This document shows positions 1,588 through 10,702 of a stretch of 39,894 nt of DNA, piece by piece. The notes below the pieces were generated by a model. It was not told the origin of the DNA and ran no database searches. It saw nothing but the letters and a program-made list of their open reading frames with translations. Source of the stretch: a virus; the IMG/VR virus record IMGVR_UViG_3300030430_000824, positions 1 to 39,894 of that record, one strand, 5' to 3'. Each line of letters opens with the position of its first letter. Within the stretch, counting starts at the first letter, position 1. Both the position numbers and the translations under genes were made by a program.

Positions 1588-1623
1588 GTATCTTTTTTTA
1601 TTTCTATATTTTTTTATATTTCT

Positions 1624-1716
1624 GTGCACGTAGGTAGATTGTGCACGTAAGTAGTTTTTTTATAACTTTGTGCACGTTGGTAGTTTATTTTTATTATATA
1701 GTGTGCACGTAGGTAG
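1624..1716 (+). repeat. Four GTGCACGTAGGTAG iterons, candidate origin
   Basis: Four near-identical 14-base direct repeats lie at 1624-1637, 1641-1654, 1670-1683 and 1703-1716 (copies 1 and 4 identical, copies 2 and 3 each with one change). Each contains the self-complementary core GTGCAC. Start-to-start spacings are 17, 29 and 33 bases. An AT-rich stretch follows. Directly repeated protein-binding sites beside an AT-rich unwinding element are the usual layout of an iteron origin; an operator array is the alternative. Confidence 0.6.
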
Positions 1717-1859
1717 GTAAATCGCCTAAGTTCTGTAATATGTGGGTATATATGTAAGTTAATTACTTCCCCTATTTATCCTATATTATATAAGCTGATT
1801 TATATACCACATCCCCCTTACACATCCCCCCAAAAAAGATTTAATTTTTTTTAATTATT
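1717..1859. other. Non-coding AT-rich segment with inverted and direct repeats
   Basis: No gene is seen here. ATGTGGGTATATA at 1740-1752 is the near-perfect inverted copy of TATATACCACAT at 1801-1812. ACATCCCCC occurs twice, at 1809-1817 and 1822-1830, followed by an A/T tract. Together with the iterons this makes a compact 200-base non-coding block that fits a replication origin or control region. Confidence 0.45.
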
Positions 1860-1890
1860 TTGGAACTTTTTTTAATACTAAGAGTATACT
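1860..1890 (+). promoter_or_regulatory. Early promoter P1
   Basis: TTGGAACTTT starts at 1860 and TATACT lies at 1885-1890. The distance from GGAACTT to the -10 box is 16 bases, the same as in P2 to P5. It reads into the gene at 1918. Confidence 0.65.
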
Positions 1891-3330: not shown

Positions 3331-3824
3331 TGCACATGATAATAAGAAACATAGTCTACGCTAATTCTGGAAGTGAGGCGATTTCCAAAGCTAGAAATAA
3401 CATGGAATATTTATGCGAAGGGCAATATCCATTTGACTACTACGATACTTTTGATAATGGTGGTACTTCGTATTGGGGCGATAGGTTGCAACCAGTGTCG
3501 GAGATAAGCACCGCAGAAGGGCGTAAATTGGTGGTAGATGGATGGAGAAACACATTAAGGGATATGAGGTATCACTTACAGGAAATACGGAAGATTACAG
3601 AAAATAAGAGCGACCTAGAAATTATAAAATCTCTGAAAGATAGTCATCTTCAGTACCATTACAAATCTGTGGGAGACTACCGAGGTTCAGGAGTGTGGAT
3701 GTATGATAGCGATGGCGAAGGGATAAAGTCTAGGAGTCATTTAAACAATGTGCTGAACAAATGGGATGCCAAGAACCTGCAAGATCAAAAGGTTTTTGTA
3801 GTACCGGCAGATGTACATTATTAA
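3330..3824 (+). CDS. Hypothetical early protein (164 aa)
   Basis: Not assigned. The N-terminal part contains VYANSGSEAISKARNNM, resembling the start of small proteins that often sit beside NGW-NYETW proteins; residues 35-55 are Tyr/Asp/Gly-rich, and the middle is helical. It overlaps the upstream stop by one base (TAATG) and sits nine bases before the HNH gene, so all three form one unit under P3. Confidence 0.6.
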   Translation: MHMIIRNIVYANSGSEAISKARNNMEYLCEGQYPFDYYDTFDNGGTSYWGDRLQPVSEISTAEGRKLVVDGWRNTLRDMRYHLQEIRKITENKSDLEIIKSLKDSHLQYHYKSVGDYRGSGVWMYDSDGEGIKSRSHLNNVLNKWDAKNLQDQKVFVVPADVHY

Positions 3825-3832
3825 GGAGGTGT

Positions 3833-4255
3833 ATGATGACAGAAACAAGAACGTGTAAGGGGTGTAATGTCAGTATGGATTTATCAGAGTTTGCTAAGAC
3901 GAGTATGCTTGACAAGTCGGGTAATCCATACAGAAGATACTACTGTACAAAACATGGATGCTATTGGGATCACAAAAAGAAAACACCCAACGGAAGAATG
4001 GAGAAAGCTAGAAAGGTGAGAGAGTACAAGGAACAACTGAGTTGTGTAAGTTGTGGTTACTCTCAGAAATCAAGAGGTAAAAAGTTTTCTACTTGGGCAT
4101 TACAATTCCATCATCACGACCACACGAAGGAAGCCAATGTTGGCAACATGATTAGTGATGGATTCGGACTCAAAAAGATATTTGATGAGATCAAGAAGTG
4201 TATTGTCCTTTGTGCTAACTGCCACATGGAATTACATGGGCATCAAAATTATTAA
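3833..4255 (+). CDS. HNH endonuclease with N-terminal zinc ribbon (140 aa)
   Basis: The C-terminal half carries an HNH/treble-clef pattern: CVSC, then LQFHHHDH, then CIVLCANCHMELH, giving two Cys pairs and the catalytic His cluster. The N-terminus adds CKGC and CTKHGC, a second zinc-binding unit. Such free-standing HNH proteins in phages are homing or DNA-nicking endonucleases. AAGGAGG lies just before a double ATG at 3833/3836; the longer open frame upstream runs into the previous gene and lacks a ribosome site. The target is unknown. Confidence 0.8.
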   Translation: MMTETRTCKGCNVSMDLSEFAKTSMLDKSGNPYRRYYCTKHGCYWDHKKKTPNGRMEKARKVREYKEQLSCVSCGYSQKSRGKKFSTWALQFHHHDHTKEANVGNMISDGFGLKKIFDEIKKCIVLCANCHMELHGHQNY

Positions 4256-5928: not shown

Positions 5929-5929
5929 T

Positions 5930-5960
5930 TTGGAACTTTTTGAAACTTGGTGCGTTTAAT
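5930..5960 (+). promoter_or_regulatory. Early promoter P5
   Basis: TTGGAACTTT begins at 5930, TTTAAT is at 5955-5960, with the same 16-base gap between GGAACTT and the -10 box and AAGTAAGC directly after. It reads into the gene at 6006 and probably drives the long transcript through the recombination block. Confidence 0.65.
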
Positions 5961-6609: not shown

Positions 6610-6794
6610 TGAAAGAGTACTACTGGACAATAACAGCTAGTGGATTTGTAGAAGCTGAGTCAGTTGAGGAAGCTAGGTCTATTCTGAAAAAAGATGCGAT
6701 TGGTTATGTCATGGATGATGAGAAATATTTAGAGATAGATGTAGACTCAGGTGATTCAAAAGAAAACATTGAATCTGAAACTAGAAATAGCTAA
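6609..6794 (+). CDS. Hypothetical early protein (61 aa)
   Basis: The N-terminus YYWTITASGFVEAESVEEARSI resembles the short beta-strand then 'v.A.s.eEA...' fold seen in many small phage proteins, whose function is unknown. The C-terminus is acidic. It is coupled to the upstream gene by TAATG and ends 22 bases before the preferred start of the HNH gene. Confidence 0.55.
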   Translation: MKEYYWTITASGFVEAESVEEARSILKKDAIGYVMDDEKYLEIDVDSGDSKENIESETRNS

Positions 6795-6816
6795 ATTAAC
6801 AGAATCGAAACTTGAG

Positions 6817-7335
6817 ATGTTGAAGAGATGTGCCACATGTAAAGAAGAGAAACCCCGTAAGGAGTTTTATATCAATCGTGCTAAACCCGATGGTAGACAA
6901 TACTCCTGTAAGGTTTGTCAAAGAAAGTATCACAACGATACGTGGTATGAATCTCATAGGGAACACAGGATACAGCAAGTCAAAGAAAGAAAGGCTCGTG
7001 TAACAAGAGAAAACTATAAGAAAATATTTATGGAGTACTTTATTCATGGCTGTGTAGATTGTGGTGAGAACGACCATCGACTTCTGGAGTTTGATCACGT
7101 TAAGGGAGTCAAGAAGAGAGGGAGGATAAGACCAACCGAAGGAGTTGGTAGCCTTGTCAGAGCAGGATACAAATGGGAAACCATAGAGAAAGAAATACAG
7201 AAGTGCAAGATAAGATGTAGAAACTGCCATCACTTGAAAACCCACAAGCAATTTGATTACATGAAGAACATAAAAGATATTGTAGAAGAATATAATAATA
7301 AACGGGAACAAATCAGTAAACGATGCGTTACATAA
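6817..7335 (+). CDS. HNH endonuclease with zinc ribbon (172 aa)
   Basis: N-terminal CATC and CKVC form one zinc unit. The C-terminal HNH/treble-clef has CVDC, LEFDHVKG (the D-H pair of the active site) and KIRCRNCHHLKTH. This is the DNA-cleaving HNH type common as free-standing phage genes. I prefer the ATG at 6817, which lies outside the preceding gene; an in-frame GTG at 6751 would add 22 residues but overlaps that gene and has no ribosome site. It differs from the HNH gene at 3833 well beyond a simple duplication. Confidence 0.8.
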   Translation: MLKRCATCKEEKPRKEFYINRAKPDGRQYSCKVCQRKYHNDTWYESHREHRIQQVKERKARVTRENYKKIFMEYFIHGCVDCGENDHRLLEFDHVKGVKKRGRIRPTEGVGSLVRAGYKWETIEKEIQKCKIRCRNCHHLKTHKQFDYMKNIKDIVEEYNNKREQISKRCVT

Positions 7336-7359: not shown

Positions 7360-7599
7360 GTGTTTACAGTATTAAGTAAACTAAAATATCAAATAGCTAA
7401 GGAGATCACTAACGTGGAGAAGCAGTGGGATGATAATCCATCTAACGATTATTATTTCGCTGAGATTACTGGTCTAAGAAAAGCTCTGGAGTTCGTGCAG
7501 AAAGCAGAGTCATCTGAATACAATGCACTAGATAAATGGGCACAAACAATACAAGGAGAGGACAATGCAGTCAACACTAGGGAACTATCAAGAAGTTAA
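7360..7599 (+). CDS. Hypothetical early protein (79 aa)
   Basis: Not recognised; a helical, soluble protein (residues 5-25 and 34-52 likely helices). The GTG start is chosen for AAAAAGGAGACAACG just upstream. It overlaps the following gene by 35 bases in another frame, indicating coupled translation. Confidence 0.55.
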   Translation: MFTVLSKLKYQIAKEITNVEKQWDDNPSNDYYFAEITGLRKALEFVQKAESSEYNALDKWAQTIQGEDNAVNTRELSRS

Positions 7600-7753
7600 T
7601 ATACATAAGGTTAAATCTCTATCTGTGGAGGAGTACCCGATCAGAGGTGGCAAGACTTACGTCAAAACAATCTATGTCAAAACAGATGAGGGTGCTGTCA
7701 TAGAGATTAACTTGTATGCAGACAAAGAAAAAACATTGGAGATAAAAGATTAA
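7565..7753 (+). CDS. Hypothetical early protein (62 aa)
   Basis: Not recognised; mostly short beta-strand-like segments (HKVKSLSVEEYPI, TYVKTIYVKTDEGAVIEINLY). The ATG follows AAGGAGAGGACA inside the end of the previous gene. It is the last gene before the structured element at 7766-7845. Confidence 0.55.
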   Translation: MQSTLGNYQEVNIHKVKSLSVEEYPIRGGKTYVKTIYVKTDEGAVIEINLYADKEKTLEIKD

Positions 7754-7765
7754 ATGAAATTATTA

Positions 7766-7845
7766 CAGGGCAGGCAGGATCGGTTTTTGCTCCAACGAAT
7801 TTTCCGATCCACTCCGCAACTACACATCTCAAAGGGCCTGCCCTG
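7766..7845 (+). ncRNA. Structured RNA element before the exonuclease gene
   Basis: CAGGGCAGGC (7766-7775) is perfectly complementary to GCCTGCCCTG (7836-7845). Inside it GGATCGG (7777-7783) pairs with CCGATCC (7804-7810) around a 20-base loop, leaving 25 unpaired bases (7811-7835) on the 3' side only. Seventeen Watson-Crick pairs nested in an AT-rich genome are unlikely by chance. It sits in a 116-base gap, ending 25 bases before the start codon of the exonuclease gene. It could be a cis-regulatory leader, a processed RNA, or a DNA cruciform; no known RNA family is recognised. Confidence 0.55.
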
Positions 7846-7869
7846 CCTCATTATACCAAAGGACAAACT

Positions 7870-8598
7870 ATGTTAAACATCCAAAAGATATACGAAGACT
7901 GGTTGCGGAAAGGCAATGACCTTCACCAGAAAAAACGATATCAAGGAAAAGAGAAATGGTTTCACGCTTCATCGGCAGGTATGTGTGTGCGAAAGCATTA
8001 CTTCCAACATGTTGCAGATGTACAACCAAAACCAGTAGATGATGATACCATGAGATTATTTAGGCTTGGAGACTTGGTACATGGAGACATTCAAGAGGCA
8101 TTGATAGATTATGCAAGAATCAACGGTTCTCAGATAATGATAGAACGTGAGATACAATTACCTGATGTAAATGTGCGTGGGTTTCTAGATGTAATTATTG
8201 TTGAAGATAACGCACTCTACGATATTAAAACGTGCAATGCTTGGAAGTGGAAAAGCTTGTTTGGTAGAAAGCCTGATCCTAATCCATCTGTTAATTATAA
8301 CATACAGCTAGGTACGTACGGTTGGTGGTTTGAAGAACATACTGGGAACAAATTAAAGAAACTAGCGTTACTATATTATAACAAAGATAATTCAAGAATG
8401 AAAGAAAAGGTAGTGCCAGTATCCTATATTAAAAAAGCAAAAGAATATTGGTATTATGTCAAAGAGAATTTTAAAACAGGTAATCCACCTATAGAGTTAG
8501 GTATAGCTCCTGTATACAAATGGGAGTGCAACCCTAAGTATTGCAACTTCTATGAGGTATGTGGCGGTGGATACAAAGAGAAAGGAGTCGATCTATGA
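7870..8598 (+). CDS. Cas4/RecB-like PD-(D/E)XK exonuclease with Fe-S cysteines (242 aa)
   Basis: The nuclease motifs are in order: LGDLVHGDIQEAL (H71), RGFLDVI (D107), YDIKT (D118, K120) and QLGTYGWW (Q146, Y150). Cys39, Cys220, Cys225 and Cys231 match the four-cysteine iron-sulfur arrangement of Cas4 and AddB-type nucleases. The likely role is 5'-3' or end-directed DNA resection in phage recombination. The ATG follows AAAGGAC. Its stop overlaps the next gene (ATGA), and it opens the recombination block to 10702. There are no CRISPR repeats here, so a Cas role is not implied. Confidence 0.8.
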   Translation: MLNIQKIYEDWLRKGNDLHQKKRYQGKEKWFHASSAGMCVRKHYFQHVADVQPKPVDDDTMRLFRLGDLVHGDIQEALIDYARINGSQIMIEREIQLPDVNVRGFLDVIIVEDNALYDIKTCNAWKWKSLFGRKPDPNPSVNYNIQLGTYGWWFEEHTGNKLKKLALLYYNKDNSRMKEKVVPVSYIKKAKEYWYYVKENFKTGNPPIELGIAPVYKWECNPKYCNFYEVCGGGYKEKGVDL

Positions 8599-10210: not shown

Positions 10211-10373
10211 CCTTACCAGAACAAAATATATCAATGGTCAGTATGTCATAGAATATCTATATCAATGTGATAAGTGTGACAATACTCACTGGTCAGATTC
10301 TAAAAGGCTTTATATGAGTTGCCCTCGCTGTAGAAATAAAAAGATGTACAGTAAAATGAGGTTAGCAGTATGA
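10203..10373 (+). CDS. Zinc-ribbon micro-protein (56 aa)
   Basis: This frame encodes CDKC and CPRC separated by about 16 residues, a classic small zinc ribbon, with a basic C-terminus. The start overlaps the preceding gene and the stop overlaps the next start (ATGA), so it fills the gap exactly. A similar ribbon occurs in many phages; its job is unknown, but it lies between two nuclease-type genes. Confidence 0.6.
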   Translation: MFDLTRTKYINGQYVIEYLYQCDKCDNTHWSDSKRLYMSCPRCRNKKMYSKMRLAV

Positions 10374-10702
10374 AGAATCCAAAGAACGTAAGGCGTGGCA
10401 GAAGGGCAAGGCAACGTGGTGCAGAGTTACAGAGACAAGCAGTACGCATGGCAAAAGAAGCAGGGCTCCAAGCGTTTAACAGAGACCGAGGTGGTGCACA
10501 GCATGAGCAAGGAGATATAGAAATAGAAGGTCAATATTTTGGATGCAAAAGAAGAAAGCAGATAGCAATGTGGATGAAGCCAGAGAAACAAGAGCATGGC
10601 GTAGTAATTCGTGAAGATCGTGGCAAACCTTATATTGTTTTAGATTATGAATATTTTATTAACACACTATCTATAATGAAGGAGATGGCAAATGAAGAAT
10701 AA
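10370..10702 (+). CDS. Holliday junction resolvase-like PD-(D/E)XK protein with altered motif (110 aa)
   Basis: RGAELQR (E19), NRDRGGAQHEQGDIEIEG (D49) and GCKRRKQ follow the order seen in archaeal-type resolvase-like phage nucleases. In such proteins the last motif is normally E-C-K; here it is G58-C59-K60, with GGA at 10541-10543 where GAA would be expected. Either the protein is catalytically weakened, another residue substitutes, or it binds DNA without cutting. GAGG precedes its ATG, which overlaps the ribbon gene (ATGA). Confidence 0.6.
   Translation: MKNPKNVRRGRRARQRGAELQRQAVRMAKEAGLQAFNRDRGGAQHEQGDIEIEGQYFGCKRRKQIAMWMKPEKQEHGVVIREDRGKPYIVLDYEYFINTLSIMKEMANEE

What the first reader, a model, noticed from the sequence alone, without database searches (positions are those of the whole stretch)
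7766..7845. 80-base paired RNA (or cruciform) before the Cas4-like exonuclease
A perfect ten-pair outer stem and a seven-pair inner stem are nested, with a 20-base loop and a one-sided 25-base unpaired strand. The GC-rich arms stand out in an AT-rich genome. It resembles no RNA family I know and sits where it could control the recombination operon or be a processed small RNA.
Basis: seen in the sequence. Interest (0 to 1): 0.7.

Follow-up and report, generated by a model that had tools for sequence, protein, structure and literature searches.

The report
Structured RNA before phage exonuclease gene
In a family of marine phages, an RNA hairpin about 80 bases long sits just before the start of a DNA-recombination exonuclease gene; its two stems have kept pairing through many compensating mutations, so it is a real structured RNA that most likely controls how much of that enzyme is made.

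Summary
It is the only such hairpin in the window and none appears in 20 shuffles. Roughly 50 other contigs carry it in the same gap, between a small ORF and the Cas4-like exonuclease. In 34 distinct sequences 96.9% of stem cells pair, 13 of 17 pairs show changes on both sides, and the covariation score is 0.61 against at most 0.10 when the partner is slid. G-U pairs occur in 11 stem columns but A-C in only 1, which points to + strand RNA, not a dsDNA cruciform. The unpaired strand carries a conserved CNCAACUACAnC motif. There is one copy per genome, no Rfam match, no coding signal and no conserved terminator. Homologues with more divergent exonucleases lack it and have the exonuclease joined directly to the upstream gene. 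Best reading: a cis-acting leader or translational operator for the exonuclease (about 0.5). Main rival: an mRNA processing or stability element. Function is inferred; the structure is well established.

The parts
7766..7775 (+). outer stem, 5' arm (CAGGGCAGGC)
   Evidence: pairs with 7836-7845; 8 of 11 modelled outer pairs change on both sides among relatives
7777..7783 (+). inner stem, 5' arm (GGATCGG)
   Evidence: 5 of 6 modelled inner pairs change on both sides among relatives
7784..7803 (+). U-rich apical loop, 11-22 nt in relatives
   Evidence: alignment A7 printed; relatives
7804..7810 (+). inner stem, 3' arm (CCGATCC)
7811..7835 (+). unpaired 3' strand; conserved CNCAACUACAnC motif (CAACTACACATCTC at 7817-7830)
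   Evidence: position; column conservation: A80 and C84 100%; C81, A83, C87 97%
7836..7845 (+). outer stem, 3' arm (GCCTGCCCTG)
7853..7863 (+). conserved ATACCAAAGGA block holding the Shine-Dalgarno of the exonuclease; unique in the window
7870..8598 (+). Cas4-like PD-(D/E)XK exonuclease, the gene the RNA always precedes
7565..7753 (+). orf62, small beta-rich protein of unknown function whose stop is usually 6-12 nt before the RNA; dispensable for the association (absent before the RNA in L205)

Best explanation
It is a conserved structured RNA element inside a polycistronic phage early mRNA. SHOWN by sequence comparison: an outer helix (8-14 bp) and an inner stem-loop are stacked on the 5' side, and opposite them hangs a 17-28 nt unpaired 3' strand with a conserved CNCAACUACAnC sequence; the whole ends 17-28 nt before the exonuclease start. 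INFERRED: it works in cis as a leader or translational operator of the exonuclease. The stems present the unpaired strand to a phage or host RNA-binding protein. Binding there, with the adjoining conserved AUACYAAAGGA ribosome-binding block, would set how often ribosomes start on the exonuclease, independently of the genes upstream. The exonuclease or another recombination protein repressing its own synthesis is the simplest version, by analogy with T4 gp43 and gp32.
For: Structure: 96.9% of cells paired, 13/17 pairs doubly changed, covariation score 0.608 against a shuffled mean of 0.218 and 0.037-0.097 when slid. A double change occurs even between 92-93% identical relatives (window or L001 against L002, C-G to U-A). 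Strand: G-U in 11 columns, A-C in 1. Position: always directly before the exonuclease; every contig with a model match lies at this site, one copy per genome; motif scans not tied to the exonuclease gave no convincing RNA elsewhere. The RNA is kept in L205, which lacks orf62, so it goes with the exonuclease. Homologues without the RNA start the exonuclease on or next to the upstream stop codon, whereas carriers mostly have a conserved RBS block. The motif is G-poor and unstructured, as a recognition site would be. T4 gp43 and gp32 leaders are precedents (PMC3014915).
Against: No ligand, protein partner, transcript or expression data. The hairpin does not sequester the ribosome-binding site in the predicted fold; no co-varying pairing of loop or 3' strand with the start region was found (p = 0.95 and 0.91) and no pseudoknot is supported (p = 0.20). 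The AUACYAAAGGA block is missing in some carriers (L026, L027, L035, L191, L193). All known carriers are related phages found mainly through the exonuclease, so the association is partly shared ancestry.
Confidence: 0.5

Rival explanations
1. mRNA processing or stability element: a hairpin between cistrons cut by a host RNase (RNase III-like site) or protecting one side of the transcript, so that orf62 and exonuclease messages decay separately, as with T7 intercistronic sites.
For: Sits between two cistrons of one operon; outer plus inner helices total about 17-23 bp; stems vary freely in sequence while pairing is kept, as expected if shape matters.
Against: Does not explain the conserved sequence of the long unpaired strand; a 17-28 nt one-sided loop is unlike small-bubble RNase III sites (own knowledge); the upstream gene is not constant (L205).
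Confidence: 0.25
2. Trans-acting small RNA processed from the operon, using the unpaired CAACUACACAUC strand as a seed against a phage or host mRNA or tRNA.
For: Conserved G-poor single-stranded segment, single copy, compact fold. It can pair over 18 bp with the KGCVDCG codons of the upstream HNH gene in L015/L018 (-25.3 kcal/mol).
Against: The HNH pairing is not maintained: own-partner energies equal permuted partners (-15.79 vs -15.68, p = 0.41), and the other loci tested are near shuffle level. No own promoter-like or terminator-like site on the + strand around it. Host unknown, so host targets were not searched.
Confidence: 0.13
3. Single-stranded DNA element of the + strand, such as a primosome or complementary-strand start, or a recombination site next to the recombination genes.
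For: Lies in the replication/recombination gene block (exonuclease; RusA-like resolvase at 10370-10702). Strand asymmetry fits any single-stranded + form.
Against: No GC-skew turn at this site; skew turns at about 11.5 kb where gene direction changes. Always placed at a fixed short distance before one start codon. Frequent G-U pairs are more natural for RNA.
Confidence: 0.06
4. A leader peptide ORF of 33-51 codons that runs through the hairpin and often overlaps the exonuclease start; the protein or its translation is what is conserved.
For: An ATG 2-11 nt before the RNA opens such an ORF in most carriers, often ending at the exonuclease start.
Against: dN/dS over this frame is 1.06, against 0.14 for the exonuclease and 0.08 for orf62 in the same genomes. 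The ATG is absent in L026, L032, L035, L043, L191 and L192. L003, L007 and the window differ by 1-2 nt indels that keep the fold but shift the frame.
Confidence: 0.03
5. Intrinsic terminator or attenuator.
For: GC-rich stem followed by T runs in L032 (T7), L041 and L191 (T5).
Against: No T run after the stem in the window or most relatives; none predicted here.
Confidence: 0.03

Closest known systems
T4 gp43 (DNA polymerase) translational operator
   Same: Phage mRNA hairpin a few tens of nt upstream of the start codon of a DNA-metabolism gene, with a conserved unpaired segment and contacts reaching the ribosome-binding site (PMC3014915).
   Different: gp43 operator is an 18-nt simple hairpin; this is about 80 nt with two stems and a long one-sided loop. 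No protein partner is known here.
T4 gene 32 leader pseudoknot
   Same: Structured nucleation site upstream of an unstructured ribosome-binding region of a recombination gene (PMC3014915).
   Different: No pseudoknot supported here; SSB target not shown.
T7-type intercistronic RNase III sites (own knowledge)
   Same: Intercistronic hairpin with an internal loop in phage early mRNA.
   Different: Large, sequence-conserved one-sided loop; always tied to one downstream gene.
Marine phage structured RNAs manA, wcaG, PhotoRC-II (Weinberg et al. 2010, PMC2864571)
   Same: Covarying RNAs of marine phages upstream of genes, found by comparative genomics.
   Different: Those are reported with metabolic or photosynthesis genes and are in Rfam; no Rfam family matches here.

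Membership tests
Any Rfam 15 family | covariance-model score at or above the curated threshold | tested here: not met
   No match in the window at gathering scores; only chance-level matches at relaxed thresholds for the window hairpin, and none on the hairpin in five relatives.
Conserved structured RNA | compensatory changes beyond chance in the proposed stems | tested here: met
   113 doubly changed cells against 28.4 +/- 5.6 in shuffles; covariation score 0.608 against at most 0.097 when slid. The alignment was fitted to the model.
Translational operator (gp43/gp32 kind) | fixed position just upstream of the regulated start codon | tested here: met
   17-28 nt from hairpin end to the exonuclease start in the relatives; 21-25 nt in further ones
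Translational operator (gp43/gp32 kind) | specific binding by the encoded or another phage protein that lowers translation | not testable with these tools
   needs binding and reporter assays
Translational operator by base-paired RBS sequestration | pairing between the element and the ribosome-binding site | tested here: not met
   no co-varying loop/RBS or strand/RBS pairing (p = 0.95, 0.91)
Intrinsic terminator | U run directly after the stem | tested here: not met
   none in the window; present only in a few relatives
Protein-coding leader ORF | purifying selection on the reading frame | tested here: not met
   dN/dS 1.06
RNase III processing site | cleavage within the hairpin | not testable with these tools
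   no RNA data
Trans-acting antisense RNA | maintained complementarity to a target | tested here: inconclusive
   HNH target rejected by permutation; host targets not searched

The most novel reading that the evidence does not exclude
A new phage RNA class in which a conserved unpaired strand held by two stacked stems is bound by the Cas4-like exonuclease itself (or by orf62 or another recombination protein) to regulate exonuclease synthesis: an RNA-binding, autoregulating role for a Cas4/RecB-type nuclease.
Probability: 0.15. Interest if true: 0.8.

Novelty: new variant of a known kind. Interest (0 to 1): 0.6.

Why it matters
Covariation this strong over about 80 bases in a phage intergenic gap is uncommon, and the family matches nothing in Rfam. 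It marks a post-transcriptional control point on the recombination gene of an uncultured marine phage group, and it gives a compact, testable RNA with a defined recognition sequence. If the exonuclease or a neighbour binds it, it would add a protein class to the short list of phage proteins that regulate their own messages.

Tried and rejected
(1) dsDNA cruciform: disfavoured by the G-U/A-C asymmetry. (2) Coding leader ORF: dN/dS 1.06 and frame-breaking indels. (3) Base pairing of the 3' strand with the upstream HNH mRNA: striking in L015/L018 (18 bp) and at first looked conserved, but own pairs are no better than permuted pairs (p = 0.41); it probably reflects a CA-rich motif meeting GT-rich CVDCG codons. 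(4) Pseudoknot of loop with 3' strand, and pairing of either with the RBS: no co-variation. (5) Mobile repeat: single copy per genome. (6) Terminator: not conserved. (7) orf62 as an RNA-binding fold: three-stranded model, pLDDT 84, but no PDB fold match better than E 0.05 and no sequence match: uninformative. (8) A bacterial version: one match in a Marinimicrobia MAG on the contig that carries the exonuclease (L224); among 60 relatives of that genome only one weak match at E 0.05. (9) Pattern scan used gap limits that were too long and missed the family; repeated with proper limits. (10) Literature: no paper on this element found; one survey of structured RNAs in viruses and phages that I recall was not held under the DOI I tried, so it could already be an anonymous candidate there.

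Full report
CHECK OF THE OBSERVATION. Its fold is 5 standard deviations more stable than shuffles. No other place in the window has perfect arms of that length and G+C content at that span, and 20 shuffled windows gave none.

COMPARATIVE TEST. A search with the exonuclease protein found 61 loci in viral contigs, extended with a profile by further and more distant ones and one contig in a bacterial MAG. In about 50 contigs the gap before the exonuclease carries the same object. The stems differ strongly: inner GGATCGG/CCGATCC, GGTCGG/CCGACC, AGGCGGT/ACCGCCT, GGTTGG/CCAACC, GGTCTGG/CCAGACC; outer CAGGGCAGGC, ACGGGGCAGG, TAAGGGCGAG, GAAGGGGATAG. A covariance model from eight sequences recovered the others, one per phage at the same site. 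On the resulting alignment (34 distinct sequences), 96.9% of stem cells pair, 13 of 17 pairs change on both sides, and the covariation score is 0.608 against 0.218 in shuffles and at most 0.097 with partners slid. That alignment was fitted to the model, but the same two helices also appear in most single sequences folded alone, and a double compensatory change separates close relatives (window or L001 against L002). Two relatives (L044, L194) keep the outer helix but have an extra internal stem.

STRAND. G-U pairs occur in 11 of 17 pair columns, A-C in one; on the minus strand these would swap. The functional molecule is therefore the + strand, which is also the direction of the surrounding genes.

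ANATOMY. The outer helix has invariant GGG/CCC; the apical loop is U-rich; the unpaired 3' strand carries CNCAACUACAnC at 82-100% per central column. A small group (L028, L029, L031) has AACGUCAUGU instead. The RNA usually begins 6-12 nt after the stop of orf62 and ends 17-28 nt before the exonuclease start. Many carriers share AUACYAAAGGA across the Shine-Dalgarno; it occurs once in the window. The nearest upstream copy of a promoter-like repeat is near 5929, so the RNA is probably internal to a long early transcript (inference).

DISTRIBUTION. Full-contig searches with a second model (R2) found the RNA in carriers once each; in contigs with exonucleases at or below 66% identity the only matches were weak, at E 0.1 or worse. 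In those phages the exonuclease starts on or next to the stop of the upstream gene. L205 has the RNA without orf62 directly before it, so the RNA is linked to the exonuclease rather than to orf62. DNA-pattern scans that did not use the exonuclease followed by model searches gave no convincing copy elsewhere.

EXCLUSIONS. Coding: dN/dS 1.06 in the leader frame against 0.14 (exonuclease) and 0.08 (orf62). Terminator: none. Repeat or mobile element: single copy. Target pairing with the HNH gene: attractive in two or three phages but not maintained. Pseudoknot and RBS pairing: not supported. Rfam: none. No relative of the region or of the exonuclease among the isolated phages held; the terminase shows only distant similarity (about 24-26% identity among the listed best hits) to isolates including roseophages.

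MECHANISM. Shown: a conserved two-helix RNA with an exposed conserved strand, at a fixed short distance before one start codon. Inferred: protein recognition of the exposed strand, tuning translation of the exonuclease. Closest precedents in function are the T4 gp43 and gp32 leaders (PMC3014915). Closest rival is an mRNA processing or stability site. I put 0.5 on the operator/leader reading, 0.25 on processing, 0.13 on a trans-acting RNA, and under 0.1 each on DNA element, leader peptide and terminator. That it is a genuine structured RNA I hold at about 0.97.

NOVELTY. A new, unlisted RNA family of phages; its likely job, cis control of a phage gene, is a known kind of thing. Hence 'new variant of a known kind', interest 0.6.

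Noticed in passing
window 1859-1869, 2122-2132, 5929-5939; looser copies near 316 and 2970: Repeated TTTGGAACTTT followed about 20-30 nt later by TATAAT-like sequence, several lying before early + strand ORFs (2187, 3031, 6006): looks like a phage-specific early promoter family.
   Followed up: partly
window 6751-7335 and L015 about 905-925: Every RNA carrier with enough upstream sequence has an HNH endonuclease of the KGC[VIF]DC type 0.8-1.2 kb upstream of the exonuclease; its Zn-knuckle codons are complementary to the RNA's unpaired strand over 18 bp in some phages, without co-variation.
   Followed up: yes
window 1609-1719: Three spaced copies of a T-run plus GTGCACGTAGGTAG unit in a non-coding gap; possible iterons of an origin or operator.
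   Followed up: no
window 7565-7753: orf62: fast-evolving small beta-rich protein with no Pfam, PHROG or PDB relative, seen only in these phages.
   Followed up: partly
L044:5874-5984 and L194 upstream of 3001: Structural variants keeping the outer helix but with an additional stem, making a three-way junction.
   Followed up: partly
window 3761-4255: A second HNH endonuclease ORF in the early region.
   Followed up: no
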